A stretch of DNA of 64,000 bases from positions 2,410,216 to 2,474,215 of the forward strand of contig JARGXX010000092.1 in assembly GCA_030374765.1 (NCBI GenBank). Direction: 5' to 3'. Origin of the DNA: Agarophyton chilense. Its lineage: Eukaryota > Rhodophyta > Florideophyceae > Gracilariales > Gracilariaceae. This document shows positions 29,766 to 53,400 of this stretch, piece by piece. Each line of letters begins with the position of its first letter. Positions within the stretch are counted from its first letter, which is position 1. Under the pieces are notes generated by a model. That model was not told the origin of the DNA. It ran no database searches and saw only the letters and a list, made by a program, of their open reading frames with translations. Both the position numbers and the translations under genes were made by a program.

Positions 29766-30785
29766 GCGCAACTGCTCATTTGGAAGACGGAATCTTTCAT
29801 TTTGGAAGCAGCATTCGAATTGAAAAAAAAGAATTTTCTGAAATGGCCGACAGATCGATTGGAGGATTCAATCCTCGATTTGGAAATCAAAAAAAAATCT
29901 AGAAAATTGAGCTTAATTGCAGTGCGCCATGGCGCCCCTAGAACCACGCACCAAATCTGCCACCCGCACTTGGTGCCCTTTTTGGCTTTTTTTGAAATCT
30001 TTTGACGCCCGTGGCGGCGTTTTGCGCGATCATGGTGCTACAGTTTTGGCTTTGATTGACGTTTGCACATTCTGGGCTCATCAGTCCATTTTTTTGGAAA
30101 CTGGACTGCACAGCCGCTCACTTGGAGGACAGAATCCCCCATTTTGCGAGCAGCATCGGAATCAAAAAATAAGTATTATTATGAAATGGCCGACAGATCG
30201 AGTGGCAGATTCGCTCCTGGATTTGGAACTCAAAAACCAATCTAAAAAATTGAGCTTAATTGCGCTGCGCCATGGCGCCCCTAGAACCCCCCACCAACTC
30301 TGCCACCTGCACTTGGTACCCTTTCTTGCATCTTTTCTTTGAAATCTTTTGGCGCCCGTGGCGGCGTTTTGCGCAATTATGGTGCCTCCGTTTTTAGCTT
30401 TGATTCAAGTTCGCTCATGCCGGGCTCATTAGTCCATTTAAATTAAAACTGGACAGCGCAGCCACTCATTTGGAGGACGGAATCCCCCATTTTGCCAGGA
30501 GCATCGGAATGGAAAAAAAAATTCTTTTCTGAAATGGCCGACAAATCGAGTGGCAGATTCAATCCTTGATTTCGAACTCAAAAAAAATCTAAAAAATTGA
30601 ACTTAATAGCACTGCGCCATGCAGCCCCTAGAGCCCGGCCCCAAATCTGCCGACGGCACTTGGTGCCCTACTTTGCTTCGTTTTCTTGAAATCATTTGGT
30701 GCCTGTGACAGCGTTTTCTGTGATCATGGTGCCTCACTTCCGGCTTCCATTCACGTTCGCCGATCCCGGGCTCATCAGGCCTTAG
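29766..30785. repeat. Three diverged tandem units of ~345 bp
   Basis: Shared blocks recur three times: CTCATTTGGAGGACGGAATC, GAAATGGCCGACAGATCGA, GCGCCATGGCGCCCCTAGA and GGCTCATCAGTCC. Anchors at 29924, 30267 and 30614 give spacings of 343 and 347 bp. No coding frame is conserved across units, so open frames here are incidental. The block fills the spacer between the C48 gene and the next plus-strand gene. Confidence 0.8.
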
Positions 30786-33929: not shown

Positions 33930-34208
33930 GGCGGTTTTACGGTTTAGGGTTTTTAGGGTTTTACGGGTTTAGGGGTTCTTTCTACTATAACTATAGGGGT
34001 TTTAGGGGTTTAGGGCTTTAGGGGTTTAGGGGTTTAGGGGTTTTAGGGGTTTTAGGGGTTTTAGGGGTTTAGGGGTTTTAGGGGTTTAGGGGGTTTTAGG
34101 GGTTTAGGGGTTTAGGGGTTTAGGGGTTTAGGGGTTTTAGGGGTTTTAGGGGTTTAGGGGTTTTTAGGGGTTTAGGGTTTAAGGGGTTTAGGGGTTTAGG
34201 GGTTGAGG
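33930..34208 (+). repeat. Interstitial telomeric array (TTTAGGGG/TTTTAGGGG), inner
   Basis: About 280 bp of irregular repeats, mostly TTTAGGGG and TTTTAGGGG, G-rich strand on +. The left 50 bp is degenerate and includes the 20-bp insert also present at 21464-21483. The right edge runs into the PLE 3' end at GGTTTTAGGTAGG. Confidence 0.93.
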
Positions 34209-34618
34209 GGTTTTAGGTAGGAGATATTGAAGGTGTGCGGCGTCGCTAGGGGAGAGAGAGAAGGGCTTAGGGGAAGCCCTTAGAAAAAGAGGAGGATTTA
34301 GGGGAAGTTTTACCTTTACGGGGATTTATTTTTGCGTAAGGAAAACAATCCTCCTCTAGGGGCTGCTCCCACAGCAGGGTACTGCACCCCGCTCTGGGAG
34401 AAAAGGGATGTAGAGAGAAAGGGGCGAAGAACAGGGGCGATTCGCGTAGGGCAGAGCGCTTTCGTCTTTATTGACTCTTCAGTGCCGTGTGGTGGGATGA
34501 GAAGAATTATGAGTAGCAGGCGGGGCCTACTGAGCTCTTATATCCTATCTCAAATCCCACTGCACTGTCATGCTACTACCTTACTCTCTAAATGGGCATC
34601 TTATGCTCTAAATTAGAA

Positions 34619-36430
34619 CTAATCCTTATTCCTGTCTCGCTCCTGGTTTTTCCAGAAGTCGTTCCAGTATCGAGTATATACCTGAACCTGCCGTTTCTTG
34701 CGGATCCGTGTATTTACTCGGCGAGCAGGTTGATGTCGCTTATGGCCAGTAGTGCGCTGCCTGGAGTTGATAGACTCCTTGCAGGGAATCGCACTTATGA
34801 TATGGCTCTTCACCGTGTTTCCTCTTTTGAAGATGAGGACACGAGGCCATTTGACTCTTATTCCGTGATAGGGCAATTGGCCGTCAATCCATTGTTCCAA
34901 ATGACGCCAGTACCGTTTCATATTGGGATGGAATAAGCATTTCACCATACCATCGAGGGGTGGCTTCTTCCTTTTAGAACGTTCGAGATATTTGGCTCTT
35001 TCTCGAAAGCTAACGTATTCCAATGCCGTTCGTAGGTAGTTACCGGTGTACCCACGCTGTGACAGCATTTTGAAAAGGAAGTTCACCTTGGCCTTCCACG
35101 TCCGTTCATCGCTGGTGTTTCGAAGGTAGCGAATCATCTCTCCCTTCACCACTCCAGTGAACGTATGAGTGGGATGATTGGACTTGCCATGGAGGTAAAG
35201 AAACTTCGAGATGGGCTTTGTGTACACCCTTAAGTCAACGATGTTATCGAAGAAAAATCTCTGTCCTTTGTAAATCTCCAGATCCAGGTACACTGCTTTC
35301 TTATCGCTGATATCCCACGTGAGACTAAGGCTTGAACAAGCGTTTAGCTTCACCATCAGCTTCTCGGCAGCTTTTCTGTTTCGGAGCACTACTAAACCGT
35401 CATCGATATAGCGACGGTTCAGTATGATATCCTTGACTGCGTCCCTGAAGATCTTCCGGAACTTAAAAAACAAGTAAAGGTTAGCAAATGCGGGCGCCAC
35501 TGCTGTCCCGGTTGCCGTTCCTTCTTCCTGTTTGTGCAACCCATGTCCATCTGTCACGTAGTTATTGAACATGATGAATTGTAGAACTCGACACCAAAAG
35601 CCTTTGTTGGGCATGAATATACGAGGAAGTTCACGCACCAACAATCGGATGGCATCTCTGATGTCGATGGATGGGTAGCATCTCTCCACGTCGTAAGTAA
35701 GAAAGATACAGTCCGTGGGAAGATGTATGTGTTCCAGCTGCCGTACGGTCTCCCAGCTGTTAACTGTGATTGCCGGGATCTTTGCCACCACTCTATTGAG
35801 GATAGCACTTAACTGTCTCGATAGATTCGCAGTGATATACGAATGCGATGCAGTTATCGGTCTCGACTTAATCGTAGGCTTGTGGATCTTCGGTAGTACA
35901 TAAAACGGGGCTGGTTTGTCGGCTTTCAATGCGTATTCCAAAACACCTTCTTTAAACTCGCGTTCAATCCGGCATTTCTCGAGGATTCCAAAGAGGTTAC
36001 CACGGAGCACTTCATGGGGGAAGAAATCAACCGTGGAGAATACACCCTCATGGATCTCCTTCTTAACCATCTCGTCATAGACTTCTCGGCTCATCAATGT
36101 GAGTCCAAGATTCTTATCGGCTTGTTTGACGATCCAGCCTTTCGTCTTTATGTACTTGATTCCTCGCATCAATGTAAGATGCAAGGTGGAGGGTCGATCG
36201 ATGCTCATATCGGATATATCTCTCTCAAACTTTCCTTTCACCCGGAGAGCTGTTGGGAGATCGACCTTCCTTCGACCCGTTACTAGTTCGGAAAAGAGTT
36301 GATCCACAGTCTCTTGCAGGCAGACTTTAAGTGGAGTGCGTAATACAAATCCTCCACCAACTGAGAGAACTTTTTTGACTTCAAACGGAAGTTCTTTGTC
36401 GGCTATTCCAATTGGTGGATTGTACTTCAA
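34619..36430 (-). CDS. Penelope-type reverse transcriptase, ORF2 of unit 1
   Basis: 603 codons from a TTG at 36430; there is no ATG before residue 75, and the frame stays open upstream into ORF1 in the -1 frame. PLE hallmarks in order: ADKNLG at 104-109, FYVLPKIHK at 176-184, motif A YDVERCYPSID with D247, motif B GTATGTAVAPAFANLYL at 304-320, motif C RYIDD with D343 and D344, and the thumb-region KSNHPTHTF and QRGY found in PLE RTs. The C-terminal 110 residues are basic and lack GIY-YIG endonuclease motifs. RT of this type copies element RNA into DNA, primed in EN-deficient PLEs by an exposed chromosome 3' end. The three copies in the window encode identical proteins. Confidence 0.92.
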   Translation of the reverse strand: MKYNPPIGIADKELPFEVKKVLSVGGGFVLRTPLKVCLQETVDQLFSELVTGRRKVDLPTALRVKGKFERDISDMSIDRPSTLHLTLMRGIKYIKTKGWIVKQADKNLGLTLMSREVYDEMVKKEIHEGVFSTVDFFPHEVLRGNLFGILEKCRIEREFKEGVLEYALKADKPAPFYVLPKIHKPTIKSRPITASHSYITANLSRQLSAILNRVVAKIPAITVNSWETVRQLEHIHLPTDCIFLTYDVERCYPSIDIRDAIRLLVRELPRIFMPNKGFWCRVLQFIMFNNYVTDGHGLHKQEEGTATGTAVAPAFANLYLFFKFRKIFRDAVKDIILNRRYIDDGLVVLRNRKAAEKLMVKLNACSSLSLTWDISDKKAVYLDLEIYKGQRFFFDNIVDLRVYTKPISKFLYLHGKSNHPTHTFTGVVKGEMIRYLRNTSDERTWKAKVNFLFKMLSQRGYTGNYLRTALEYVSFRERAKYLERSKRKKPPLDGMVKCLFHPNMKRYWRHLEQWIDGQLPYHGIRVKWPRVLIFKRGNTVKSHIISAIPCKESINSRQRTTGHKRHQPARRVNTRIRKKRQVQVYTRYWNDFWKNQERDRNKD

Positions 36431-36474
36431 CTCTTTAACCTTGAAGCAACGGGGTTTCCTTCGCCGTGAACGGT

Positions 36475-37392
36475 TTAGTTTTGCTTGGCGCCCCGTCCGG
36501 CGGCGCCTGGCTTCCCGTTTTTCGGCTTTGGCTTCACGGGTTTCTTGGACTTGCCTCCCTGCTGTAGATGGCTTTTCGGGCGGTTTTGTTGACCTTTACT
36601 GTTCTTCCCTTTAGCCTTCAGGGGGGCTTGAGAAACTTTAAGAGAGGAAACTTCCTTCCTAAGTGCTTCCATCTCCTTCCGCAGCCGATCGACTTCGTCT
36701 GAAGCCTCAGCTTCATCGGCCTCGGCAGCGGATTCTTTTAGGAGAGTAGCATTCCGTTTCTCATCGTCAATGACTTGTCCAATGGTGTTCTTGAGTTCCA
36801 TTCGAAGCTTAGCTGATTGCAGCTCTTCCACAAACACCGATCGGTAACTTGCAAACGTTGCAAGAATCTGATCCTTGGAGATGTGACTCGTCTTTCGGTA
36901 GACGCGATTTAGTGCTTCTTTCACCTTAACCATGGCTTCGTTGAGAAGCTTCTTTCGCTCATCAGTCAGGAATTCAAGTTCATCCTTCCTGACTTTTATG
37001 AGGAAGTCCAGAGAGTCCTGTGCAAACTTCTCTGACATGGCTTTAAACTCAGCACCATGCTTCTCCTTCATTGAACTGGACATCTGCGGCATTCGGGGTA
37101 CCGCAATAGACTTTGGAAAGGTTCCATCGTCTTTGTGCTTTTCCAGCTCATCAAGGAGATCGACCCTGCGAGCTATCTTTTCGTCCACAGTAAGAACGCG
37201 CTTGCGGTGTAAAGCGACTAGTTTATTCAGCTGTGGCTTCACCATCTTCAAAATCTCAAAATCAGGAAGTTCTTGCTCATTAACTTGAGCATCGTTTTCC
37301 TGAATCGGATTGTTTTCTTGAAGAACAGCAGCTTCCTCCTCATGAACCGATGTGTCGTGTTCAATGTTGGAGGCCATGCTACGTGTTTGCAT
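36475..37392 (-). CDS. Gag-like coiled-coil/basic ORF1 of PLE unit 1
   Basis: 305 aa from ATG at 37392. The N-terminal half is acidic and helical. A heptad-like segment, DEVDRLRKEMEALRKEVSSL, lies near 235-255, then a Lys/Gly/Pro-rich basic tail (GKSKKPVKPKPKNGKP) suited to RNA binding. No zinc knuckle is present. It precedes RT ORF2, whose frame overlaps its end in -1. A likely role is RNA packaging or multimerisation of the element's ribonucleoprotein; this is inferred from composition and position. Confidence 0.75.
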   Translation of the reverse strand: MQTRSMASNIEHDTSVHEEEAAVLQENNPIQENDAQVNEQELPDFEILKMVKPQLNKLVALHRKRVLTVDEKIARRVDLLDELEKHKDDGTFPKSIAVPRMPQMSSSMKEKHGAEFKAMSEKFAQDSLDFLIKVRKDELEFLTDERKKLLNEAMVKVKEALNRVYRKTSHISKDQILATFASYRSVFVEELQSAKLRMELKNTIGQVIDDEKRNATLLKESAAEADEAEASDEVDRLRKEMEALRKEVSSLKVSQAPLKAKGKNSKGQQNRPKSHLQQGGKSKKPVKPKPKNGKPGAAGRGAKQN

Positions 37393-37850
37393 AGTGAGAG
37401 AGATATCTGCTCGGCGACGGCTACTACCTCGCGTACTAGAGGTTTTAGGTAGGAGATATTGAAGGTGTGCGGCGTCGCTAGGGGAGAGAGAGAAGGGCTT
37501 AGGGGAAGCCCTTAGAAAAAGAGGAGGATTTAGGGGAAGTTTTACCTTTACGGGGATTTATTTTTGCGTAAGGAAAACAATCCTCCTCTAGGGGCTGCTC
37601 CCACAGCAGGGTACTGCACCCCGCTCTGGGAGAAAAGGGATGTAGAGAGAAAGGGGCGAAGAACAGGGGCGATTCGCGTAGGGCAGAGCGCTTTCGTCTT
37701 TATTGACTCTTCAGTGCCGTGTGGTGGGATGAGAAGAATTATGAGTAGCAGGCGGGGCCTACTGAGCTCTTATATCCTATCTCAAATCCCACTGCACTGT
37801 CATGCTACTACCTTACTCTCTAAATGGGCATCTTATGCTCTAAATTAGAA

Positions 37851-39662
37851 CTAATCCTTATTCCTGTCTCGCTCCTGGTTTTTCCAGAAGTCGTTCCAGT
37901 ATCGAGTATATACCTGAACCTGCCGTTTCTTGCGGATCCGTGTATTTACTCGGCGAGCAGGTTGATGTCGCTTATGGCCAGTAGTGCGCTGCCTGGAGTT
38001 GATAGACTCCTTGCAGGGAATCGCACTTATGATATGGCTCTTCACCGTGTTTCCTCTTTTGAAGATGAGGACACGAGGCCATTTGACTCTTATTCCGTGA
38101 TAGGGCAATTGGCCGTCAATCCATTGTTCCAAATGACGCCAGTACCGTTTCATATTGGGATGGAATAAGCATTTCACCATACCATCGAGGGGTGGCTTCT
38201 TCCTTTTAGAACGTTCGAGATATTTGGCTCTTTCTCGAAAGCTAACGTATTCCAATGCCGTTCGTAGGTAGTTACCGGTGTACCCACGCTGTGACAGCAT
38301 TTTGAAAAGGAAGTTCACCTTGGCCTTCCACGTCCGTTCATCGCTGGTGTTTCGAAGGTAGCGAATCATCTCTCCCTTCACCACTCCAGTGAACGTATGA
38401 GTGGGATGATTGGACTTGCCATGGAGGTAAAGAAACTTCGAGATGGGCTTTGTGTACACCCTTAAGTCAACGATGTTATCGAAGAAAAATCTCTGTCCTT
38501 TGTAAATCTCCAGATCCAGGTACACTGCTTTCTTATCGCTGATATCCCACGTGAGACTAAGGCTTGAACAAGCGTTTAGCTTCACCATCAGCTTCTCGGC
38601 AGCTTTTCTGTTTCGGAGCACTACTAAACCGTCATCGATATAGCGACGGTTCAGTATGATATCCTTGACTGCGTCCCTGAAGATCTTCCGGAACTTAAAA
38701 AACAAGTAAAGGTTAGCAAATGCGGGCGCCACTGCTGTCCCGGTTGCCGTTCCTTCTTCCTGTTTGTGCAACCCATGTCCATCTGTCACGTAGTTATTGA
38801 ACATGATGAATTGTAGAACTCGACACCAAAAGCCTTTGTTGGGCATGAATATACGAGGAAGTTCACGCACCAACAATCGGATGGCATCTCTGATGTCGAT
38901 GGATGGGTAGCATCTCTCCACGTCGTAAGTAAGAAAGATACAGTCCGTGGGAAGATGTATGTGTTCCAGCTGCCGTACGGTCTCCCAGCTGTTAACTGTG
39001 ATTGCCGGGATCTTTGCCACCACTCTATTGAGGATAGCACTTAACTGTCTCGATAGATTCGCAGTGATATACGAATGCGATGCAGTTATCGGTCTCGACT
39101 TAATCGTAGGCTTGTGGATCTTCGGTAGTACATAAAACGGGGCTGGTTTGTCGGCTTTCAATGCGTATTCCAAAACACCTTCTTTAAACTCGCGTTCAAT
39201 CCGGCATTTCTCGAGGATTCCAAAGAGGTTACCACGGAGCACTTCATGGGGGAAGAAATCAACCGTGGAGAATACACCCTCATGGATCTCCTTCTTAACC
39301 ATCTCGTCATAGACTTCTCGGCTCATCAATGTGAGTCCAAGATTCTTATCGGCTTGTTTGACGATCCAGCCTTTCGTCTTTATGTACTTGATTCCTCGCA
39401 TCAATGTAAGATGCAAGGTGGAGGGTCGATCGATGCTCATATCGGATATATCTCTCTCAAACTTTCCTTTCACCCGGAGAGCTGTTGGGAGATCGACCTT
39501 CCTTCGACCCGTTACTAGTTCGGAAAAGAGTTGATCCACAGTCTCTTGCAGGCAGACTTTAAGTGGAGTGCGTAATACAAATCCTCCACCAACTGAGAGA
39601 ACTTTTTTGACTTCAAACGGAAGTTCTTTGTCGGCTATTCCAATTGGTGGATTGTACTTCAA
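37851..39662 (-). CDS. Penelope-type reverse transcriptase, ORF2 of unit 2
   Basis: Protein identical to the unit 1 RT, with intact FYVLPKIHK, YDVER, GTATGTAVAP and RYIDD motifs. If expression depends on fusion with ORF1, the upstream frameshift in this unit would silence it. Confidence 0.9.
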   Translation of the reverse strand: MKYNPPIGIADKELPFEVKKVLSVGGGFVLRTPLKVCLQETVDQLFSELVTGRRKVDLPTALRVKGKFERDISDMSIDRPSTLHLTLMRGIKYIKTKGWIVKQADKNLGLTLMSREVYDEMVKKEIHEGVFSTVDFFPHEVLRGNLFGILEKCRIEREFKEGVLEYALKADKPAPFYVLPKIHKPTIKSRPITASHSYITANLSRQLSAILNRVVAKIPAITVNSWETVRQLEHIHLPTDCIFLTYDVERCYPSIDIRDAIRLLVRELPRIFMPNKGFWCRVLQFIMFNNYVTDGHGLHKQEEGTATGTAVAPAFANLYLFFKFRKIFRDAVKDIILNRRYIDDGLVVLRNRKAAEKLMVKLNACSSLSLTWDISDKKAVYLDLEIYKGQRFFFDNIVDLRVYTKPISKFLYLHGKSNHPTHTFTGVVKGEMIRYLRNTSDERTWKAKVNFLFKMLSQRGYTGNYLRTALEYVSFRERAKYLERSKRKKPPLDGMVKCLFHPNMKRYWRHLEQWIDGQLPYHGIRVKWPRVLIFKRGNTVKSHIISAIPCKESINSRQRTTGHKRHQPARRVNTRIRKKRQVQVYTRYWNDFWKNQERDRNKD

Positions 39663-39706
39663 CTCTTTAACCTTGAAGCAACGGGGTTTCCTTCGCCGTG
39701 AACGGT

Positions 39707-40623
39707 TTAGTTTTGCTTGGCGCCCCGTCCGGCGGCGCCTGGCTTCCCGTTTTTCGGCTTTGGCTTCACGGGTTTCTTGGACTTGCCTCCCTGCTGTAGA
39801 TGGCTTTTCGGGCGGTTTTGTTGACCTTTACTGTTCTTCCCTTTAGCCTTCAGGGGGGCTTGAGAAACTTTAAGAGAGGAAACTTCCTTCCTAAGTGCTT
39901 CCATCTCCTTCCGCAGCCGATCGACTTCGTCTGAAGCCTCAGCTTCATCGGCCTCGGCAGCGGATTCTTTTAGGAGAGTAGCATTCCGTTTCTCATCGTC
40001 AATGACTTGTCCAATGGTGTTCTTGAGTTCCATTCGAAGCTTAGCTGATTGCAGCTCTTCCACAAACACCGATCGGTAACTTGCAAACGTTGCAAGAATC
40101 TGATCCTTGGAGATGTGACTCGTCTTTCGGTAGACGCGATTTAGTGCTTCTTTCACCTTAACCATGGCTTCGTTGAGAAGCTTCTTTCGCTCATCAGTCA
40201 GGAATTCAAGTTCATCCTTCCTGACTTTTATGAGGAAGTCCAGAGAGTCCTGTGCAAACTTCTCTGACATGGCTTTAAACTCAGCACCATGCTTCTCCTT
40301 CATTGAACTGGACATCTGCGGCATTCGGGTACCGCAATAGACTTTGGAAAGGTTCCATCGTCTTTGTGCTTTTCCAGCTCATCAAGGAGATCGACCCTGC
40401 GAGCTATCTTTTCGTCCACAGTAAGAACGCGCTTGCGGTGTAAAGCGACTAGTTTATTCAGCTGTGGCTTCACCATCTTCAAAATCTCAAAATCAGGAAG
40501 TTCTTGCTCATTAACTTGAGCATCGTTTTCCTGAATCGGATTGTTTTCTTGAAGAACAGCAGCTTCCTCCTCATGAACCGATGTGTCGTGTTCAATGTTG
40601 GAGGCCATGCTACGTGTTTGCAT
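39707..40623 (-). pseudogene. Frameshifted ORF1 of PLE unit 2
   Basis: Same ORF1 as in units 1 and 3, but a run of four G (on +) is three G near 40327. The frame breaks after about residue 98, leaving a 107-codon 5' frame (40300-40623) and a 205-codon 3' frame (39707-40324). It could be a real mutation or a homopolymer error. Confidence 0.85.
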
Positions 40624-41081
40624 AGTGAGAGAGATATCTGCTCGGCGACGGCTACTACCTCGCGTACTAGAGGTTTTAGGTAGGAGATATTGAAGGTGTG
40701 CGGCGTCGCTAGGGGAGAGAGAGAAGGGCTTAGGGGAAGCCCTTAGAAAAAGAGGAGGATTTAGGGGAAGTTTTACCTTTACGGGGATTTATTTTTGCGT
40801 AAGGAAAACAATCCTCCTCTAGGGGCTGCTCCCACAGCAGGGTACTGCACCCCGCTCTGGGAGAAAAGGGATGTAGAGAGAAAGGGGCGAAGAACAGGGG
40901 CGATTCGCGTAGGGCAGAGCGCTTTCGTCTTTATTGACTCTTCAGTGCCGTGTGGTGGGATGAGAAGAATTATGAGTAGCAGGCGGGGCCTACTGAGCTC
41001 TTATATCCTATCTCAAATCCCACTGCACTGTCATGCTACTACCTTACTCTCTAAATGGGCATCTTATGCTCTAAATTAGAA

Positions 41082-42893
41082 CTAATCCTTATTCCTGTCT
41101 CGCTCCTGGTTTTTCCAGAAGTCGTTCCAGTATCGAGTATATACCTGAACCTGCCGTTTCTTGCGGATCCGTGTATTTACTCGGCGAGCAGGTTGATGTC
41201 GCTTATGGCCAGTAGTGCGCTGCCTGGAGTTGATAGACTCCTTGCAGGGAATCGCACTTATGATATGGCTCTTCACCGTGTTTCCTCTTTTGAAGATGAG
41301 GACACGAGGCCATTTGACTCTTATTCCGTGATAGGGCAATTGGCCGTCAATCCATTGTTCCAAATGACGCCAGTACCGTTTCATATTGGGATGGAATAAG
41401 CATTTCACCATACCATCGAGGGGTGGCTTCTTCCTTTTAGAACGTTCGAGATATTTGGCTCTTTCTCGAAAGCTAACGTATTCCAATGCCGTTCGTAGGT
41501 AGTTACCGGTGTACCCACGCTGTGACAGCATTTTGAAAAGGAAGTTCACCTTGGCCTTCCACGTCCGTTCATCGCTGGTGTTTCGAAGGTAGCGAATCAT
41601 CTCTCCCTTCACCACTCCAGTGAACGTATGAGTGGGATGATTGGACTTGCCATGGAGGTAAAGAAACTTCGAGATGGGCTTTGTGTACACCCTTAAGTCA
41701 ACGATGTTATCGAAGAAAAATCTCTGTCCTTTGTAAATCTCCAGATCCAGGTACACTGCTTTCTTATCGCTGATATCCCACGTGAGACTAAGGCTTGAAC
41801 AAGCGTTTAGCTTCACCATCAGCTTCTCGGCAGCTTTTCTGTTTCGGAGCACTACTAAACCGTCATCGATATAGCGACGGTTCAGTATGATATCCTTGAC
41901 TGCGTCCCTGAAGATCTTCCGGAACTTAAAAAACAAGTAAAGGTTAGCAAATGCGGGCGCCACTGCTGTCCCGGTTGCCGTTCCTTCTTCCTGTTTGTGC
42001 AACCCATGTCCATCTGTCACGTAGTTATTGAACATGATGAATTGTAGAACTCGACACCAAAAGCCTTTGTTGGGCATGAATATACGAGGAAGTTCACGCA
42101 CCAACAATCGGATGGCATCTCTGATGTCGATGGATGGGTAGCATCTCTCCACGTCGTAAGTAAGAAAGATACAGTCCGTGGGAAGATGTATGTGTTCCAG
42201 CTGCCGTACGGTCTCCCAGCTGTTAACTGTGATTGCCGGGATCTTTGCCACCACTCTATTGAGGATAGCACTTAACTGTCTCGATAGATTCGCAGTGATA
42301 TACGAATGCGATGCAGTTATCGGTCTCGACTTAATCGTAGGCTTGTGGATCTTCGGTAGTACATAAAACGGGGCTGGTTTGTCGGCTTTCAATGCGTATT
42401 CCAAAACACCTTCTTTAAACTCGCGTTCAATCCGGCATTTCTCGAGGATTCCAAAGAGGTTACCACGGAGCACTTCATGGGGGAAGAAATCAACCGTGGA
42501 GAATACACCCTCATGGATCTCCTTCTTAACCATCTCGTCATAGACTTCTCGGCTCATCAATGTGAGTCCAAGATTCTTATCGGCTTGTTTGACGATCCAG
42601 CCTTTCGTCTTTATGTACTTGATTCCTCGCATCAATGTAAGATGCAAGGTGGAGGGTCGATCGATGCTCATATCGGATATATCTCTCTCAAACTTTCCTT
42701 TCACCCGGAGAGCTGTTGGGAGATCGACCTTCCTTCGACCCGTTACTAGTTCGGAAAAGAGTTGATCCACAGTCTCTTGCAGGCAGACTTTAAGTGGAGT
42801 GCGTAATACAAATCCTCCACCAACTGAGAGAACTTTTTTGACTTCAAACGGAAGTTCTTTGTCGGCTATTCCAATTGGTGGATTGTACTTCAA
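41082..42893 (-). CDS. Penelope-type reverse transcriptase, ORF2 of unit 3
   Basis: Identical in protein sequence to the unit 1 RT, with the same TTG-only start and -1 overlap with ORF1. Upstream ORF1 is intact here, so unit 3 is potentially competent. Confidence 0.92.
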   Translation of the reverse strand: MKYNPPIGIADKELPFEVKKVLSVGGGFVLRTPLKVCLQETVDQLFSELVTGRRKVDLPTALRVKGKFERDISDMSIDRPSTLHLTLMRGIKYIKTKGWIVKQADKNLGLTLMSREVYDEMVKKEIHEGVFSTVDFFPHEVLRGNLFGILEKCRIEREFKEGVLEYALKADKPAPFYVLPKIHKPTIKSRPITASHSYITANLSRQLSAILNRVVAKIPAITVNSWETVRQLEHIHLPTDCIFLTYDVERCYPSIDIRDAIRLLVRELPRIFMPNKGFWCRVLQFIMFNNYVTDGHGLHKQEEGTATGTAVAPAFANLYLFFKFRKIFRDAVKDIILNRRYIDDGLVVLRNRKAAEKLMVKLNACSSLSLTWDISDKKAVYLDLEIYKGQRFFFDNIVDLRVYTKPISKFLYLHGKSNHPTHTFTGVVKGEMIRYLRNTSDERTWKAKVNFLFKMLSQRGYTGNYLRTALEYVSFRERAKYLERSKRKKPPLDGMVKCLFHPNMKRYWRHLEQWIDGQLPYHGIRVKWPRVLIFKRGNTVKSHIISAIPCKESINSRQRTTGHKRHQPARRVNTRIRKKRQVQVYTRYWNDFWKNQERDRNKD

Positions 42894-42937
42894 CTCTTTA
42901 ACCTTGAAGCAACGGGGTTTCCTTCGCCGTGAACGGT

Positions 42938-43855
42938 TTAGTTTTGCTTGGCGCCCCGTCCGGCGGCGCCTGGCTTCCCGTTTTTCGGCTTTGGCTTCAC
43001 GGGTTTCTTGGACTTGCCTCCCTGCTGTAGATGGCTTTTCGGGCGGTTTTGTTGACCTTTACTGTTCTTCCCTTTAGCCTTCAGGGGGGCTTGAGAAACT
43101 TTAAGAGAGGAAACTTCCTTCCTAAGTGCTTCCATCTCCTTCCGCAGCCGATCGACTTCGTCTGAAGCCTCAGCTTCATCGGCCTCGGCAGCGGATTCTT
43201 TTAGGAGAGTAGCATTCCGTTTCTCATCGTCAATGACTTGTCCAATGGTGTTCTTGAGTTCCATTCGAAGCTTAGCTGATTGCAGCTCTTCCACAAACAC
43301 CGATCGGTAACTTGCAAACGTTGCAAGAATCTGATCCTTGGAGATGTGACTCGTCTTTCGGTAGACGCGATTTAGTGCTTCTTTCACCTTAACCATGGCT
43401 TCGTTGAGAAGCTTCTTTCGCTCATCAGTCAGGAATTCAAGTTCATCCTTCCTGACTTTTATGAGGAAGTCCAGAGAGTCCTGTGCAAACTTCTCTGACA
43501 TGGCTTTAAACTCAGCACCATGCTTCTCCTTCATTGAACTGGACATCTGCGGCATTCGGGGTACCGCAATAGACTTTGGAAAGGTTCCATCGTCTTTGTG
43601 CTTTTCCAGCTCATCAAGGAGATCGACCCTGCGAGCTATCTTTTCGTCCACAGTAAGAACGCGCTTGCGGTGTAAAGCGACTAGTTTATTCAGCTGTGGC
43701 TTCACCATCTTCAAAATCTCAAAATCAGGAAGTTCTTGCTCATTAACTTGAGCATCGTTTTCCTGAATCGGATTGTTTTCTTGAAGAACAGCAGCTTCCT
43801 CCTCATGAACCGATGTGTCGTGTTCAATGTTGGAGGCCATGCTACGTGTTTGCAT
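42938..43855 (-). CDS. Gag-like coiled-coil/basic ORF1 of PLE unit 3
   Basis: 305 aa, identical to ORF1 of unit 1, from ATG at 43855, 48 nt after the inferred element 5' end. It has the same heptad segment and basic tail. Confidence 0.75.
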   Translation of the reverse strand: MQTRSMASNIEHDTSVHEEEAAVLQENNPIQENDAQVNEQELPDFEILKMVKPQLNKLVALHRKRVLTVDEKIARRVDLLDELEKHKDDGTFPKSIAVPRMPQMSSSMKEKHGAEFKAMSEKFAQDSLDFLIKVRKDELEFLTDERKKLLNEAMVKVKEALNRVYRKTSHISKDQILATFASYRSVFVEELQSAKLRMELKNTIGQVIDDEKRNATLLKESAAEADEAEASDEVDRLRKEMEALRKEVSSLKVSQAPLKAKGKNSKGQQNRPKSHLQQGGKSKKPVKPKPKNGKPGAAGRGAKQN

Positions 43856-43903
43856 AGTGAGAGAGATATCTGCTCGGCGACGGCTACTACCTCGCGTACT
43901 AGA

Positions 43904-43999
43904 GGTTTTAGGTAGGAGATATTGAAGGTGTGCGGCGTCGCTAGGGGAGAGAGAGAAGGGCTTAGGGGAAGCCCTTAGAAAAAGAGGAGGATTTAGGGG
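43904..43999 (-). mobile_element. 5'-truncated PLE copy (unit 4), 96 bp
   Basis: Only the 3'-terminal 96 bp of the element is present. The match to the other units ends exactly after ATTTAGGGG, and telomeric repeats continue from there instead of AAGTTTTACC. Confidence 0.88.
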
Positions 44000-44488
44000 T
44001 TTAGGGGTTTAGGGGTTTAGGGGTTAGGGGTTTTAGGGGTTTAGGGGTTTTTAGGGGTTTAGGGGTTTAGGGGTTTTAGGGGTTTAGGGGTTTTAGGGGT
44101 TTTAGGGGTTTAGGGGTTTAGGGGTTTTAGGGGTTTAGGGGTTTAGGGGTTTTAGGGCGTAGGGGTTTAGGGGTTTAGGGGTTTAGGGGTTTAGGGGTTT
44201 TAGGGGTTTAGGGGTTTTAGGGGTTTAGGGGTTTAGGGGTTTTAGGGGTTTAGGGGTTTAGGGGTTTTAGGGGTTTAGGGTTTAGGGGTTTTAAGGGGTT
44301 TAGGGGTTTTAGGGGTTTTTAGGGGTTTAGGGGTTTTAGGGGTTTAGGGCGTTTAGGGGTTCTAAGGGTTTAGGGGTTTTTAGGGGTTTAGGGGTTTAGG
44401 GGTTTAGGGGTTTTAGGGCGTTTAGGGGTTTAGGGTTTAGGGGTTTAGGGGTTTAGGGTTTAGGGGTTTAGGGGTTTAGGGGTTTAGG
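44000..44488 (+). repeat. Interstitial telomeric array (TTTAGGGG/TTTTAGGGG), outer
   Basis: About 490 bp of irregular TTTAGGGG and TTTTAGGGG repeats with few substitutions, in the same orientation as the inner array. It passes into the satellite through GGGGTTTAGGTGTT, a sequence also found once in every satellite monomer. Confidence 0.95.
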
Positions 44489-47400
44489 TGTTAAGAAATG
44501 CGGTGGGAATAATTACATGATATTAGGGGCGCTACTCCTAATTGTAATTGTCCTGCAAACAATGGGAATTGAACCCACGACTTGTGGAAAATATTAACAA
44601 ATATTAACCACTGAGCTAAACGTACTCATATTGGCTTGACTTATGGACTTGCGACGTTTCCATTTAAGGTACTAATCGACTTGCAACTGTTCCCCTTAAG
44701 GGTACTTGGTTGGCGACGGCATTTTTCTATTCCGCGAACGGGGTTTAGGTGTTAAGAAATGCGGTGGGAATGTGCGGCGTCGCTGTGCTCTGGAGGAACT
44801 TAATTTGCTAATTAGGGGTGGCCAAACCTTAATTGCAAGTGTTACCTCGTCATTAAGCTAATTACATGATATTAGGGGCGCTACTCCTAATTGTAATTGT
44901 CCTGCAAACAATGGGAATTGAACCCACGACTTGTGGAAAATATTAACAAATATTAACCACTGAGCTAAACGTACTCATATTGGCTTGACTTATGGACTTG
45001 CGACGTTTCCATTTAAGGTACTAATCGACTTGCAACTGTTCCCCTTAAGGGTACTTGGTTGGCGACGGCATTTTTCTATTCCGCGAACGGGGTTTAGGTG
45101 TTAAGAAATGCGGTGGGAATGTGCGGCGTCGCTGTGCTCTGGAGGAACTTAATTTGCTAATTAGGGGTGGCCAAACCTTAATTGCAAGTGTTACCTCGTC
45201 ATTAAGCTAATTACATGATATTAGGGGCGCTACTCCTAATTGTAATTGTCCTGCAAACAATGGGAATTGAACCCACGACTTGTGGAAAATATTAACAAAT
45301 ATTAACCACTGAGCTAAACGTACTCATATTGGCTTGACTTATGGACTTGCGACGTTTCCATTTAAGGTACTAATCGACTTGCAACTGTTCCCCTTAAGGG
45401 TACTTGGTTGGCGACGGCATTTTTCTATTCCGCGAACGGGGTTTAGGTGTTAAGAAATGCGGTGGGAATGTGCGGCGTCGCTGTGCTCTGGAGGAACTTA
45501 ATTTGCTAATTAGGGGTGGCCAAACCTTAATTGCAAGTGTTACCTCGTCATTAAGCTAATTACATGATATTAGGGGCGCTACTCCTAATTGTAATTGTCC
45601 TGCAAACAATGGGAATTGAACCCACGACTTGTGGAAAATATTAACAAATATTAACCACTGAGCTAAACGTACTCATATTGGCTTGACTTATGGACTTGCG
45701 ACGTTTCCATTTAAGGTACTAATCGACTTGCAACTGTTCCCCTTAAGGGTACTTGGTTGGCGACGGCATTTTTCTATTCCGCGAACGGGGTTTAGGTGTT
45801 AAGAAATGCGGTGGGAATGTGCGGCGTCGCTGTGCTCTGGAGGAACTTAATTTGCTAATTAGGGGTGGCCAAACCTTAATTGCAAGTGTTACCTCGTCAT
45901 TAAGCTAATTACATGATATTAGGGGCGCTACTCCTAATTGTAATTGTCCTGCAAACAATGGGAATTGAACCCACGACTTGTGGAAAATATTAACAAATAT
46001 TAACCACTGAGCTAAACGTACTCATATTGGCTTGACTTATGGACTTGCGACGTTTCCATTTAAGGTACTAATCGACTTGCAACTGTTCCCCTTAAGGGTA
46101 CTTGGTTGGCGACGGCATTTTTCTATTCCGCGAACGGGGTTTAGGTGTTAAGAAATGCGGTGGGAATGTGCGGCGTCGCTGTGCTCTGGAGGAACTTAAT
46201 TTGCTAATTAGGGGTGGCCAAACCTTAATTGCAAGTGTTACCTCGTCATTAAGCTAATTACATGATATTAGGGGCGCTACTCCTAATTGTAATTGTCCTG
46301 CAAACAATGGGAATTGAACCCACGACTTGTGGAAAATATTAACAAATATTAACCACTGAGCTAAACGTACTCATATTGGCTTGACTTATGGACTTGCGAC
46401 GTTTCCATTTAAGGTACTAATCGACTTGCAACTGTTCCCCTTAAGGGTACTTGGTTGGCGACGGCATTTTTCTATTCCGCGAACGGGGTTTAGGTGTTAA
46501 GAAATGCGGTGGGAATGTGCGGCGTCGCTGTGCTCTGGAGGAACTTAATTTGCTAATTAGGGGTGGCCAAACCTTAATTGCAAGTGTTACCTCGTCATTA
46601 AGCTAATTACATGATATTAGGGGCGCTACTCCTAATTGTAATTGTCCTGCAAACAATGGGAATTGAACCCACGACTTGTGGAAAATATTAACAAATATTA
46701 ACCACTGAGCTAAACGTACTCATATTGGCTTGACTTATGGACTTGCGACGTTTCCATTTAAGGTACTAATCGACTTGCAACTGTTCCCCTTAAGGGTACT
46801 TGGTTGGCGACGGCATTTTTCTATTCCGCGAACGGGGTTTAGGTGTTAAGAAATGCGGTGGGAATGTGCGGCGTCGCTGTGCTCTGGAGGAACTTAATTT
46901 GCTAATTAGGGGTGGCCAAACCTTAATTGCAAGTGTTACCTCGTCATTAAGCTAATTACATGATATTAGGGGCGCTACTCCTAATTGTAATTGTCCTGCA
47001 AACAATGGGAATTGAACCCACGACTTGTGGAAAATATTAACAAATATTAACCACTGAGCTAAACGTACTCATATTGGCTTGACTTATGGACTTGCGACGT
47101 TTCCATTTAAGGTACTAATCGACTTGCAACTGTTCCCCTTAAGGGTACTTGGTTGGCGACGGCATTTTTCTATTCCGCGAACGGGGTTTAGGTGTTAAGA
47201 AATGCGGTGGGAATGTGCGGCGTCGCTGTGCTCTGGAGGAACTTAATTTGCTAATTAGGGGTGGCCAAACCTTAATTGCAAGTGTTACCTCGTCATTAAG
47301 CTAATTACATGATATTAGGGGCGCTACTCCTAATTGTAATTGTCCTGCAAACAATGGGAATTGAACCCACGACTTGTGGAAAATATTAACAAATATTAAC

Positions 47401-50400
47401 CACTGAGCTAAACGTACTCATATTGGCTTGACTTATGGACTTGCGACGTTTCCATTTAAGGTACTAATCGACTTGCAACTGTTCCCCTTAAGGGTACTTG
47501 GTTGGCGACGGCATTTTTCTATTCCGCGAACGGGGTTTAGGTGTTAAGAAATGCGGTGGGAATGTGCGGCGTCGCTGTGCTCTGGAGGAACTTAATTTGC
47601 TAATTAGGGGTGGCCAAACCTTAATTGCAAGTGTTACCTCGTCATTAAGCTAATTACATGATATTAGGGGCGCTACTCCTAATTGTAATTGTCCTGCAAA
47701 CAATGGGAATTGAACCCACGACTTGTGGAAAATATTAACAAATATTAACCACTGAGCTAAACGTACTCATATTGGCTTGACTTATGGACTTGCGACGTTT
47801 CCATTTAAGGTACTAATCGACTTGCAACTGTTCCCCTTAAGGGTACTTGGTTGGCGACGGCATTTTTCTATTCCGCGAACGGGGTTTAGGTGTTAAGAAA
47901 TGCGGTGGGAATGTGCGGCGTCGCTGTGCTCTGGAGGAACTTAATTTGCTAATTAGGGGTGGCCAAACCTTAATTGCAAGTGTTACCTCGTCATTAAGCT
48001 AATTACATGATATTAGGGGCGCTACTCCTAATTGTAATTGTCCTGCAAACAATGGGAATTGAACCCACGACTTGTGGAAAATATTAACAAATATTAACCA
48101 CTGAGCTAAACGTACTCATATTGGCTTGACTTATGGACTTGCGACGTTTCCATTTAAGGTACTAATCGACTTGCAACTGTTCCCCTTAAGGGTACTTGGT
48201 TGGCGACGGCATTTTTCTATTCCGCGAACGGGGTTTAGGTGTTAAGAAATGCGGTGGGAATGTGCGGCGTCGCTGTGCTCTGGAGGAACTTAATTTGCTA
48301 ATTAGGGGTGGCCAAACCTTAATTGCAAGTGTTACCTCGTCATTAAGCTAATTACATGATATTAGGGGCGCTACTCCTAATTGTAATTGTCCTGCAAACA
48401 ATGGGAATTGAACCCACGACTTGTGGAAAATATTAACAAATATTAACCACTGAGCTAAACGTACTCATATTGGCTTGACTTATGGACTTGCGACGTTTCC
48501 ATTTAAGGTACTAATCGACTTGCAACTGTTCCCCTTAAGGGTACTTGGTTGGCGACGGCATTTTTCTATTCCGCGAACGGGGTTTAGGTGTTAAGAAATG
48601 CGGTGGGAATGTGCGGCGTCGCTGTGCTCTGGAGGAACTTAATTTGCTAATTAGGGGTGGCCAAACCTTAATTGCAAGTGTTACCTCGTCATTAAGCTAA
48701 TTACATGATATTAGGGGCGCTACTCCTAATTGTAATTGTCCTGCAAACAATGGGAATTGAACCCACGACTTGTGGAAAATATTAACAAATATTAACCACT
48801 GAGCTAAACGTACTCATATTGGCTTGACTTATGGACTTGCGACGTTTCCATTTAAGGTACTAATCGACTTGCAACTGTTCCCCTTAAGGGTACTTGGTTG
48901 GCGACGGCATTTTTCTATTCCGCGAACGGGGTTTAGGTGTTAAGAAATGCGGTGGGAATGTGCGGCGTCGCTGTGCTCTGGAGGAACTTAATTTGCTAAT
49001 TAGGGGTGGCCAAACCTTAATTGCAAGTGTTACCTCGTCATTAAGCTAATTACATGATATTAGGGGCGCTACTCCTAATTGTAATTGTCCTGCAAACAAT
49101 GGGAATTGAACCCACGACTTGTGGAAAATATTAACAAATATTAACCACTGAGCTAAACGTACTCATATTGGCTTGACTTATGGACTTGCGACGTTTCCAT
49201 TTAAGGTACTAATCGACTTGCAACTGTTCCCCTTAAGGGTACTTGGTTGGCGACGGCATTTTTCTATTCCGCGAACGGGGTTTAGGTGTTAAGAAATGCG
49301 GTGGGAATGTGCGGCGTCGCTGTGCTCTGGAGGAACTTAATTTGCTAATTAGGGGTGGCCAAACCTTAATTGCAAGTGTTACCTCGTCATTAAGCTAATT
49401 ACATGATATTAGGGGCGCTACTCCTAATTGTAATTGTCCTGCAAACAATGGGAATTGAACCCACGACTTGTGGAAAATATTAACAAATATTAACCACTGA
49501 GCTAAACGTACTCATATTGGCTTGACTTATGGACTTGCGACGTTTCCATTTAAGGTACTAATCGACTTGCAACTGTTCCCCTTAAGGGTACTTGGTTGGC
49601 GACGGCATTTTTCTATTCCGCGAACGGGGTTTAGGTGTTAAGAAATGCGGTGGGAATGTGCGGCGTCGCTGTGCTCTGGAGGAACTTAATTTGCTAATTA
49701 GGGGTGGCCAAACCTTAATTGCAAGTGTTACCTCGTCATTAAGCTAATTACATGATATTAGGGGCGCTACTCCTAATTGTAATTGTCCTGCAAACAATGG
49801 GAATTGAACCCACGACTTGTGGAAAATATTAACAAATATTAACCACTGAGCTAAACGTACTCATATTGGCTTGACTTATGGACTTGCGACGTTTCCATTT
49901 AAGGTACTAATCGACTTGCAACTGTTCCCCTTAAGGGTACTTGGTTGGCGACGGCATTTTTCTATTCCGCGAACGGGGTTTAGGTGTTAAGAAATGCGGT
50001 GGGAATGTGCGGCGTCGCTGTGCTCTGGAGGAACTTAATTTGCTAATTAGGGGTGGCCAAACCTTAATTGCAAGTGTTACCTCGTCATTAAGCTAATTAC
50101 ATGATATTAGGGGCGCTACTCCTAATTGTAATTGTCCTGCAAACAATGGGAATTGAACCCACGACTTGTGGAAAATATTAACAAATATTAACCACTGAGC
50201 TAAACGTACTCATATTGGCTTGACTTATGGACTTGCGACGTTTCCATTTAAGGTACTAATCGACTTGCAACTGTTCCCCTTAAGGGTACTTGGTTGGCGA
50301 CGGCATTTTTCTATTCCGCGAACGGGGTTTAGGTGTTAAGAAATGCGGTGGGAATGTGCGGCGTCGCTGTGCTCTGGAGGAACTTAATTTGCTAATTAGG

Positions 50401-53400
50401 GGTGGCCAAACCTTAATTGCAAGTGTTACCTCGTCATTAAGCTAATTACATGATATTAGGGGCGCTACTCCTAATTGTAATTGTCCTGCAAACAATGGGA
50501 ATTGAACCCACGACTTGTGGAAAATATTAACAAATATTAACCACTGAGCTAAACGTACTCATATTGGCTTGACTTATGGACTTGCGACGTTTCCATTTAA
50601 GGTACTAATCGACTTGCAACTGTTCCCCTTAAGGGTACTTGGTTGGCGACGGCATTTTTCTATTCCGCGAACGGGGTTTAGGTGTTAAGAAATGCGGTGG
50701 GAATGTGCGGCGTCGCTGTGCTCTGGAGGAACTTAATTTGCTAATTAGGGGTGGCCAAACCTTAATTGCAAGTGTTACCTCGTCATTAAGCTAATTACAT
50801 GATATTAGGGGCGCTACTCCTAATTGTAATTGTCCTGCAAACAATGGGAATTGAACCCACGACTTGTGGAAAATATTAACAAATATTAACCACTGAGCTA
50901 AACGTACTCATATTGGCTTGACTTATGGACTTGCGACGTTTCCATTTAAGGTACTAATCGACTTGCAACTGTTCCCCTTAAGGGTACTTGGTTGGCGACG
51001 GCATTTTTCTATTCCGCGAACGGGGTTTAGGTGTTAAGAAATGCGGTGGGAATGTGCGGCGTCGCTGTGCTCTGGAGGAACTTAATTTGCTAATTAGGGG
51101 TGGCCAAACCTTAATTGCAAGTGTTACCTCGTCATTAAGCTAATTACATGATATTAGGGGCGCTACTCCTAATTGTAATTGTCCTGCAAACAATGGGAAT
51201 TGAACCCACGACTTGTGGAAAATATTAACAAATATTAACCACTGAGCTAAACGTACTCATATTGGCTTGACTTATGGACTTGCGACGTTTCCATTTAAGG
51301 TACTAATCGACTTGCAACTGTTCCCCTTAAGGGTACTTGGTTGGCGACGGCATTTTTCTATTCCGCGAACGGGGTTTAGGTGTTAAGAAATGCGGTGGGA
51401 ATGTGCGGCGTCGCTGTGCTCTGGAGGAACTTAATTTGCTAATTAGGGGTGGCCAAACCTTAATTGCAAGTGTTACCTCGTCATTAAGCTAATTACATGA
51501 TATTAGGGGCGCTACTCCTAATTGTAATTGTCCTGCAAACAATGGGAATTGAACCCACGACTTGTGGAAAATATTAACAAATATTAACCACTGAGCTAAA
51601 CGTACTCATATTGGCTTGACTTATGGACTTGCGACGTTTCCATTTAAGGTACTAATCGACTTGCAACTGTTCCCCTTAAGGGTACTTGGTTGGCGACGGC
51701 ATTTTTCTATTCCGCGAACGGGGTTTAGGTGTTAAGAAATGCGGTGGGAATGTGCGGCGTCGCTGTGCTCTGGAGGAACTTAATTTGCTAATTAGGGGTG
51801 GCCAAACCTTAATTGCAAGTGTTACCTCGTCATTAAGCTAATTACATGATATTAGGGGCGCTACTCCTAATTGTAATTGTCCTGCAAACAATGGGAATTG
51901 AACCCACGACTTGTGGAAAATATTAACAAATATTAACCACTGAGCTAAACGTACTCATATTGGCTTGACTTATGGACTTGCGACGTTTCCATTTAAGGTA
52001 CTAATCGACTTGCAACTGTTCCCCTTAAGGGTACTTGGTTGGCGACGGCATTTTTCTATTCCGCGAACGGGGTTTAGGTGTTAAGAAATGCGGTGGGAAT
52101 GTGCGGCGTCGCTGTGCTCTGGAGGAACTTAATTTGCTAATTAGGGGTGGCCAAACCTTAATTGCAAGTGTTACCTCGTCATTAAGCTAATTACATGATA
52201 TTAGGGGCGCTACTCCTAATTGTAATTGTCCTGCAAACAATGGGAATTGAACCCACGACTTGTGGAAAATATTAACAAATATTAACCACTGAGCTAAACG
52301 TACTCATATTGGCTTGACTTATGGACTTGCGACGTTTCCATTTAAGGTACTAATCGACTTGCAACTGTTCCCCTTAAGGGTACTTGGTTGGCGACGGCAT
52401 TTTTCTATTCCGCGAACGGGGTTTAGGTGTTAAGAAATGCGGTGGGAATGTGCGGCGTCGCTGTGCTCTGGAGGAACTTAATTTGCTAATTAGGGGTGGC
52501 CAAACCTTAATTGCAAGTGTTACCTCGTCATTAAGCTAATTACATGATATTAGGGGCGCTACTCCTAATTGTAATTGTCCTGCAAACAATGGGAATTGAA
52601 CCCACGACTTGTGGAAAATATTAACAAATATTAACCACTGAGCTAAACGTACTCATATTGGCTTGACTTATGGACTTGCGACGTTTCCATTTAAGGTACT
52701 AATCGACTTGCAACTGTTCCCCTTAAGGGTACTTGGTTGGCGACGGCATTTTTCTATTCCGCGAACGGGGTTTAGGTGTTAAGAAATGCGGTGGGAATGT
52801 GCGGCGTCGCTGTGCTCTGGAGGAACTTAATTTGCTAATTAGGGGTGGCCAAACCTTAATTGCAAGTGTTACCTCGTCATTAAGCTAATTACATGATATT
52901 AGGGGCGCTACTCCTAATTGTAATTGTCCTGCAAACAATGGGAATTGAACCCACGACTTGTGGAAAATATTAACAAATATTAACCACTGAGCTAAACGTA
53001 CTCATATTGGCTTGACTTATGGACTTGCGACGTTTCCATTTAAGGTACTAATCGACTTGCAACTGTTCCCCTTAAGGGTACTTGGTTGGCGACGGCATTT
53101 TTCTATTCCGCGAACGGGGTTTAGGTGTTAAGAAATGCGGTGGGAATGTGCGGCGTCGCTGTGCTCTGGAGGAACTTAATTTGCTAATTAGGGGTGGCCA
53201 AACCTTAATTGCAAGTGTTACCTCGTCATTAAGCTAATTACATGATATTAGGGGCGCTACTCCTAATTGTAATTGTCCTGCAAACAATGGGAATTGAACC
53301 CACGACTTGTGGAAAATATTAACAAATATTAACCACTGAGCTAAACGTACTCATATTGGCTTGACTTATGGACTTGCGACGTTTCCATTTAAGGTACTAA

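What the first reader, a model, noticed from the sequence alone, without database searches (positions are those of the whole stretch)
34209..44530. Satellite and PLE share a telomere-seed plus 14-bp tail
On + the PLE 3' end reads TTTTAGGT, 15 bp, then TGTGCGGCGTCGCT. The satellite reads GTTTAGGTG, 22 bp, then the same TGTGCGGCGTCGCT. With its tRNA-like head, each monomer has the layout of a SINE whose tail is borrowed from its partner retroelement. Inference: the PLE RT may copy satellite RNA onto chromosome ends, a possibly undescribed non-autonomous telomere-building system.
Basis: partly seen in the sequence, partly recalled or inferred. Interest (0 to 1): 0.85.

Follow-up and report, generated by a model that had tools for sequence, protein, structure and literature searches.

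The report
Telomeric satellite borrowing both retroelement ends
A 349-base non-coding repeat at this organism's chromosome ends carries both the start and the end of a neighbouring telomere-seeking retroelement, so it looks like a tiny parasite that rides that element's copying enzyme onto chromosome tips.

Summary
The shared tail is real. The 14-bp block occurs 383 times in the 79.8-Mb genome: 365 in the satellite, 17 in the PLE-type element (PLE-A), 1 in unrelated DNA. The satellite also shares the PLE 5' end (GCCGTCGCC and flank, same register), and three further PLE families (B, C, D) carry nearly the same 3' motif, so it looks like a family-wide cis-signal. Of 15 inspected satellite beginnings, 13 start at the GGTTTAGG seed, 12 of them after telomere tracts, one as a 36-bp single insert. 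In 23 loci oriented by their elements, no satellite or PLE hit ran the other way. Distal ends are variably 5'-truncated and usually capped by telomere repeats. That is the anatomy of telomere-primed reverse transcription. The tRNA-like module is real but lies 107 nt inside the RNA, so it is not a canonical SINE head. Best reading: a minimal non-autonomous PLE (MoTeR2-like logic) seeded at chromosome ends by PLE RT. How long homogeneous arrays arise is open: no direct PLE-satellite join was found with two genome-wide patterns, and one array holds blocks of variant monomers, pointing to multimeric or circular templates or DNA-level amplification. There is no transcript or enzymatic evidence.

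The parts
33994..34213 (+). proximal telomeric tract, G-rich strand (T3-5)AGGGG
34209..37440 (-). PLE-A copy 1 (3232 bp); RNA sense on the minus strand, RNA 3' end at 34209
34234..34247 (+). 14-bp block TGTGCGGCGTCGCT (RNA: AGCGACGCCGCACA) in PLE-A copy 1; repeated at 37466, 40697, 43929
34460..34482 (-). hammerhead-like core motif CTGAAGAG..GACGAAA in the PLE-A 3' UTR (Rfam does not confirm it)
34619..36430 (-). reverse transcriptase ORF, 603 aa (RVT_1 hit); no endonuclease domain found by Pfam
36475..37392 (-). ORF1, 305 aa, only sub-threshold coiled-coil-like Pfam hits
37413..37421 (-). 5' shared motif GCCGTCGCC (RNA 20-28) of PLE-A copy 1
37441..40671 (-). PLE-A copy 2 (one base fewer, ORF1 interrupted; RT ORF 37851-39662 open)
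40672..43903 (-). PLE-A copy 3 (RT 41082-42893, ORF1 42938-43855)
43904..43999 (-). PLE-A copy 4, only the 3'-most 96 bp (5'-truncated), followed by telomere repeats
43992..44492 (+). second telomeric tract between PLE-A and the satellite
44481..44741 (-). first satellite monomer: positions 1-30 then 118-349 (88 bp missing, including the 14-bp block), joined to telomere at GGTTTAGG
44742..63999 (-). satellite array to the contig end, 349-bp monomers, 50 identical; RNA sense on the minus strand
44771..44784 (+). 14-bp block in the first full monomer
44903..44984 (-). tRNA-like module (RNA 107-188): A box 44957-44967, B box 44914-44924
45061..45069 (-). 5' shared motif GCCGTCGCC (RNA 22-30) of the first full monomer

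Best explanation
The satellite is a minimal non-autonomous derivative of the telomere-associated PLE-type retroelements in this genome. Its RNA (minus strand) begins like a PLE RNA (GTTCGCGG..TAG..GCCGTCGCC) and ends like one (AGCGACGCCGCACA, about 20 nt, CCUAAACC). The unpaired 3' CCUAAACC anneals to the G-rich 3' overhang (TTTAGGGG)n; the PLE reverse transcriptase, recognising the conserved 3' motif, extends the chromosome end, often stopping early, and telomerase then caps the new end. Shown: shared termini, seed junctions, orientation, variable truncation, telomere repeats beyond the truncated ends, a TERT domain. Inferred: satellite RNA, recognition of the motif by PLE RT, capping by telomerase, which PLE family is the partner. 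Unresolved: whether long identical arrays come from multimeric or circular RNA templates or from later DNA-level amplification.
For: Block census 365 satellite + 17 PLE-A + 1 unrelated of 383. The 3' motif GCGACGC[C/A]GCACA also stands near the 3' end of PLE-B, C and D. 5' ends of satellite, A, B and D align in register with an invariant GCCGTCGCC. 13 of 15 satellite, 9 of 9 PLE-A and 3 of 3 PLE-B proximal boundaries in fetched loci start at position 1. In 23 loci oriented by element, 0 minus-strand element hits and 0 C-rich telomere runs; 22 of 23 have G-rich runs. 20 distinct telomere-repeat patterns precede 22 junctions, so most insertions look independent. Truncated ends that meet telomere repeats: satellite at 300 (C1, C75), 198 (C12), 36 (C99); PLE-A at 96, 262, 308, 377, 2448, 2581. 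TERT RNA-binding domain at C73, E 2.5e-29.
Against: No expression or enzyme data. 2 of 15 satellite beginnings are internal (C71 at 121, C75 at 88), beside a short TTA match. No PLE-satellite join in either direction with the two patterns tried. Array homogeneity, the SNP block on C99 and a shared odd distal end on C1 and C75 show that DNA exchange or local amplification also acts. With PLE-A alone the satellite shares just the 14-mer at the 3' end and a 9-mer at the 5' end, and that 5' score (18) equals the best PLE-A interior window; the 5' case rests on B, D and register. Only 1 of 7 stretches fetched downstream of older RT copies showed the motif. PLE identity of the RT rests on RVT_1, architecture and recalled motifs; no database PLE was compared and the AlphaFold model failed (pLDDT 32.9).
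Confidence: 0.62

Rival explanations
1. The satellite once derived from a PLE but now spreads only by DNA recombination between chromosome ends (break-induced replication, unequal exchange, telomeric circles), as described for MoTeR arrays.
For: No PLE-satellite join with two patterns; 16 full monomers plus the truncated first with 149A>T, followed by 35 without it, on C99; C1 and C75 share a distal end truncated at 300 with a similar odd TATAGGG; C128 and C129 share array length and upstream pattern, C12 and C31 an upstream pattern; 5 first monomers jump internally, as a strand invasion could give. BIR of arrays is described for MoTeR (PMC7367193 passages).
Against: 13 of 15 beginnings fall on the same base, in mostly different telomere contexts (20 patterns in 22 junctions); a 36-bp insert lies between telomere repeats; PLEs show the same boundary rule.
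Confidence: 0.25
2. Same end-primed reverse transcription, but the partner is PLE-B or any of the PLE families rather than PLE-A of this window.
For: The best local alignment of the satellite tail is with PLE-B (score 30, 31 of 41 columns in the printed alignment) against 28 for A; the 5' end is also closest to B (22 against 18). PLE-B has more RT copies.
Against: The exact 14-mer is shared with A only, and 13 of it with C; B differs at one of those 13.
Confidence: 0.1
3. The shared letters are chance or a general subtelomeric host motif.
For: The 14-mer read backwards occurs 9 times and one exact match lies in unrelated DNA, so single chance hits exist.
Against: Near-exclusive census, same register at both ends, shuffles.
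Confidence: 0.02

Closest known systems
MoTeR1/MoTeR2 of Magnaporthe oryzae (PMC7367193, passages read)
   Same: Telomere-inserted autonomous element plus a non-autonomous partner sharing both the 5' and 3' termini; head-to-tail arrays; 5' truncation capped by telomere repeats; BIR of arrays.
   Different: MoTeR1 has a putative REL-ENDO domain (non-LTR type, recalled); MoTeR2 is about 1.7 kb and shares 860 and 77 bp. Here the partner is PLE-type, the satellite is 349 bp, without an ORF of 60 aa, and shares only about 30-40 nt at each end.
Endonuclease-deficient telomeric PLEs: Athena and Terminons (PMC6431247 and PMC12477314 passages); Coprina (recalled); the 2007 and 2017 originals not held
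   Same: Two ORFs without endonuclease, attachment to G-rich overhangs through reverse-complement telomeric letters at the RNA 3' end, 5' truncation by telomeric repeats, head-to-tail arrays.
   Different: In those accounts a hammerhead lies immediately beside the 3' telomeric letters; here a hammerhead-like core lies 134-236 nt upstream of another conserved motif that precedes the seed. No short non-coding partner is mentioned in the passages read.
Metazoan retrozymes (PMC7229834 passages)
   Same: About 300-bp non-coding tandem monomers, co-occurring with PLEs, which are proposed as the helper.
   Different: Retrozymes have type I hammerheads and circular RNAs; the satellite has no CTGANGA..GAAA core on either strand. 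Here helper and satellite share terminal sequences, which those passages do not report.
tRNA-derived SINEs with LINE tails (recalled)
   Same: Pol III-type A and B boxes, tail shared with a helper retroelement.
   Different: Module internal, both ends shared, tandem arrays at telomeres, PLE-type helper.

Membership tests
Telomere-associated endonuclease-deficient PLE (PLE-A) | Reverse transcriptase ORF | tested here: met
   RVT_1 E 5.3e-08, over the cut-off; PLE-specific motifs such as PKIHKP are recalled only
Telomere-associated endonuclease-deficient PLE (PLE-A) | RT belongs to the PLE clade in a phylogeny | not tested
   no reference PLE proteins at hand; PDB searches empty; structure model unusable
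Telomere-associated endonuclease-deficient PLE (PLE-A) | No GIY-YIG endonuclease | tested here: met
   no such Pfam hit listed at E up to 1 in either ORF
Telomere-associated endonuclease-deficient PLE (PLE-A) | RNA 3' end joined to telomeric repeats, 5' truncation, head-to-tail copies | tested here: met
Telomere-associated endonuclease-deficient PLE (PLE-A) | Hammerhead ribozyme | tested here: inconclusive
   core motif in A-D, no Rfam match, fold ambiguous
Non-autonomous PLE (satellite) | No coding capacity, shares both termini with an autonomous PLE | tested here: met
   0 ORFs of 60 aa or more in window 44742-46200
Non-autonomous PLE (satellite) | Mobilised in trans by PLE RT | not testable with these tools
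   needs RNA and enzyme assays
tRNA-derived SINE (satellite) | A and B boxes at tRNA spacing | tested here: met
   zero mismatches, spacing 43; 0 of 3000 shuffles with 1 or fewer, 2 with two
tRNA-derived SINE (satellite) | tRNA-like head at the RNA 5' end, Pol III transcript | tested here: not met
   module at RNA 107-188, T4 run at 151; Pol III use untested
Retrozyme (satellite) | Hammerhead ribozyme in the monomer | tested here: not met
   no core on either strand, no hammerhead among Rfam hits

The most novel reading that the evidence does not exclude
A PLE-type reverse transcriptase, kin of telomerase, builds chromosome-end DNA from a 349-nt non-coding RNA held in a 5'-3' panhandle that leaves its telomere-complementary 3' end free, reading a circular or multimeric form many times around, so that a satellite acts as a mobile second telomere template beside telomerase.
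Probability: 0.15. Interest if true: 0.85.

Novelty: new variant of a known kind. Interest (0 to 1): 0.6.

Why it matters
PLEs have been proposed, but in the passages read not shown, to mobilise short tandem non-coding repeats such as retrozymes. Here helper and passenger share both termini in one genome, with more than twenty natural junctions read, so trans-mobilisation by a PLE becomes directly testable, and the conserved 3' motif is a candidate recognition signal. It also offers a retrotranspositional origin for a telomeric satellite, as against recombination alone.

Tried and rejected
Hammerhead in the satellite: none on either strand. Rfam on the locus, on three PLE loci and on the satellite: nothing over a gathering score; tRNA at 15.9 bits against a cut-off of 29. 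Intron reading of the 88 bp missing from the first monomer: no fitting GT..AG boundary (by eye). Panhandle as proof: the 5' CGUCGC / 3' GCGACG pairing has P above 0.9 in the satellite fold, but shuffles reach the duplex energy in 15 (satellite), 126 (A), 288 (B) and 202 (D) of 2000, and cognate pairs are not consistently strongest; kept as an idea. RT stop at the motif: 7 of 14 satellite breakpoints that I listed by hand fall in positions 24-43 (binomial 4.9e-6), but the interval was chosen after looking and 5 of the 7 are internal jumps. Other short families with the tail: block variants gave 60 places. I read some of them: on C1, C32, C127, C98, the C22 end and a B-like relic on C113 they are PLE tails, while C16, C22:334590 and C88 are unrelated; the rest I assign to PLE-B by position. 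TGTGCHGCGTCGCT gave 9 scattered places, backward control 2, not inspected. Tandem-junction signatures gave 46 and 9 places and no new family, though letters were printed for only 19 of the 46 and none of the 9. Tails of older RT copies: 6 of 7 downstream stretches lacked the motif. Structure of the RT: failed, so no fold search was made. Host identity: not established; 'TTTAGGGG' with telomere listed 2 papers, and a passage of one names it only as a variant repeat.
Full report
What is there. The window is the end of contig C92 (2,474,215 bp) of a 79.8-Mb, 135-contig genome. Reading toward the contig end: a G-strand telomeric tract (33994-34213), three tandem retroelement units of 3232, 3231 and 3232 bp and a 96-bp 5'-truncated fourth (34209-43999), a second telomeric tract (to 44492), then a 349-bp satellite to the contig end. 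The retroelement (called PLE-A here) runs on the minus strand, with a 305-aa ORF1 and a 603-aa RT (RVT_1, E 5.3e-08) and no endonuclease domain found. Copy 2 lacks one base, which interrupts ORF1.

The observation. Genome-wide the 14-mer occurs 383 times; the backward control occurs 9 times. 365 are followed by satellite sequence. The other 18 are followed by A; 17 of these are PLE-A copies and one, C93:476124, sits in unrelated DNA.

Both ends are shared. A second family, PLE-B (3060-bp period, 70% amino-acid identity), has more copies than PLE-A: one search lists 75 RT matches (123 candidates, 73 scored), 12 of them full-length PLE-A. PLE-B and two older families, C and D, carry GCGACGC[A/C]GCACA at the same place, then CCTAAA(A)CC or, in D, CCGAAACC. 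For D, 3 of 4 places were read, and the boundary between one copy's 3' end and the next copy's 5' end is my assignment. Of 7 stretches downstream of older RT copies, only the PLE-C one showed the motif. The RNA 5' ends of A, B, D and the satellite align in register with an invariant GCCGTCGCC. Against 20,000 dinucleotide shuffles, the summed score of the satellite 3' end with A, B and C was reached once, and that of the 5' end with A, B and D 28 times. Satellite windows away from its ends, and PLE-A interior windows, scored at most 18; the satellite 5' end scores 22 with B, 20 with D and 18 with A, so the match to A alone is no better than background and register carries the case there.

Junctions. 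I oriented 23 fetched stretches of 20 contigs by their elements. No element hit ran the other way. No C-rich telomere run was found, and 22 of 23 had G-rich runs; the exception, the proximal piece of C75, joins unique DNA through about one and a half repeats. Satellite beginnings: 15 seen; 13 start at position 1 (GGTTTAGG; C64 with one changed base, C2 with another) and 2 internally (C71 at 121, C75 at 88, beside TTA). PLE-A: 9 of 9 at position 1, 8 after telomere repeats and 1 (C105) after other DNA. PLE-B: 3 of 3. 20 distinct telomere-repeat length patterns precede 22 junctions, so most insertions look independent; C128/C129 and C12/C31 share a pattern. Distal ends vary. Satellite: cut at 300 (C1, C75), 198 (C12) or 36 (C99) then telomere; full length then telomere (C128, C129); cut at 221 on C64 and joined to a second piece starting at position 9, then telomere; cut at 181 on C71, a short jumped piece, then telomere; cut at 223 on C31 and joined to other DNA. 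PLE-A: cut at 96, 262, 308, 377, 2448 or 2581, then telomere; about 110 on C105, then other DNA. The list of satellite places is capped at 100 of 365, so arrays other than those on the 12 contigs read may exist. A TERT RNA-binding domain is present: C73, E 2.5e-29.

The tRNA-like module. A and B boxes match with zero mismatches at spacing 43; 0 of 3000 shuffles reach one mismatch or fewer. ARAGORN reports it only at a lowered threshold and Rfam tRNA at 15.9 bits, below the gathering score. It lies at RNA 107-188, not at the 5' end, and T4 lies between the boxes. A tRNA-derived promoter remnant is well supported; a SINE-type Pol III transcript with the right 3' end is not.

How arrays form. Direct joins of satellite to PLE-A or PLE-B in either direction: 0 with the two patterns tried. 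Like-to-like joins: 8 for PLE-A among the 9 hits (the ninth, C105:1933927, was not inspected) and 42 at PLE-B positions among the 46 (letters printed for 18 of them). On C99, 16 full monomers plus the truncated first carry 149A>T, and the next 35 do not. PLE-A copies likewise fall into sets: 766T>G on C28, C68, C95 and C97 and not on C9 or C92. These results speak against one-by-one addition from a mixed RNA pool, and for multimeric or circular templates or DNA amplification. C1 and C75 also share a distal end, so chromosome-end exchange occurs. I regard RT seeding as likely and the amplification step as open.

Known comparators. Passages of PMC7367193 describe MoTeR2, a telomeric element likely dependent on MoTeR1 with both its ends, and BIR of arrays. 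Passages of PMC6431247 and PMC12477314 describe endonuclease-deficient PLEs and Terminons that attach to G-rich overhangs. Passages of PMC7229834 propose PLEs as helpers of about 300-bp retrozymes. A passage of PMC6685494 mentions short non-autonomous Penelope elements in butterflies. No paper describing a short non-coding telomeric partner of a PLE stood in the listings of searches; I saw titles and starts of abstracts, several lists were capped (20 of 51, 12 of 51, 12 of 293, 10 of 16), and the library lacks the key PLE originals.

Verdict. A new variant of a known kind: MoTeR2-like logic on a PLE-type element, reduced to 349 non-coding bases. The enzymatic step is inferred.

Noticed in passing
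PLE 3' UTRs: window 34460-34482; L027 8882; L061 (reverse complement) 195; L068 147: Hammerhead-like core CTGA[A/G]GAG..GACGAAAGCGCTC conserved in PLE-A, B, C and D inside a long hairpin; Rfam does not match it where tried.
   Followed up: partly
L049 (C32:37700-40000), 501-639: A decayed satellite monomer in which many patches are changed to telomere-like letters (GGGTTT, AGGGG), as if mixed with telomere repeats or mis-polished in assembly.
   Followed up: no
C99 satellite array (L080, L081, L052): 16 full monomers plus the truncated first carry one SNP, followed by 35 monomers without it.
   Followed up: partly
first satellite monomers on C92, C2, C71, C75, C99: Monomers next to the telomere often break at positions 24-40 and resume internally, close to the conserved motif.
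   Followed up: partly
window 5210-8548 (-): One 1112-aa frame with an N6/N4 DNA methylase domain and a SET domain.
   Followed up: no
window 23526-26132 (+) and 26913-29414 (-): A long ORF without Pfam match (recalled resemblance to Crypton-type tyrosine recombinases) beside an ORF with a Ulp1-type C48 peptidase domain.
   Followed up: no
window 29775-30778: A 348-bp tandem repeat of 2.9 copies, of almost the same period as the satellite but with a different unit.
   Followed up: no
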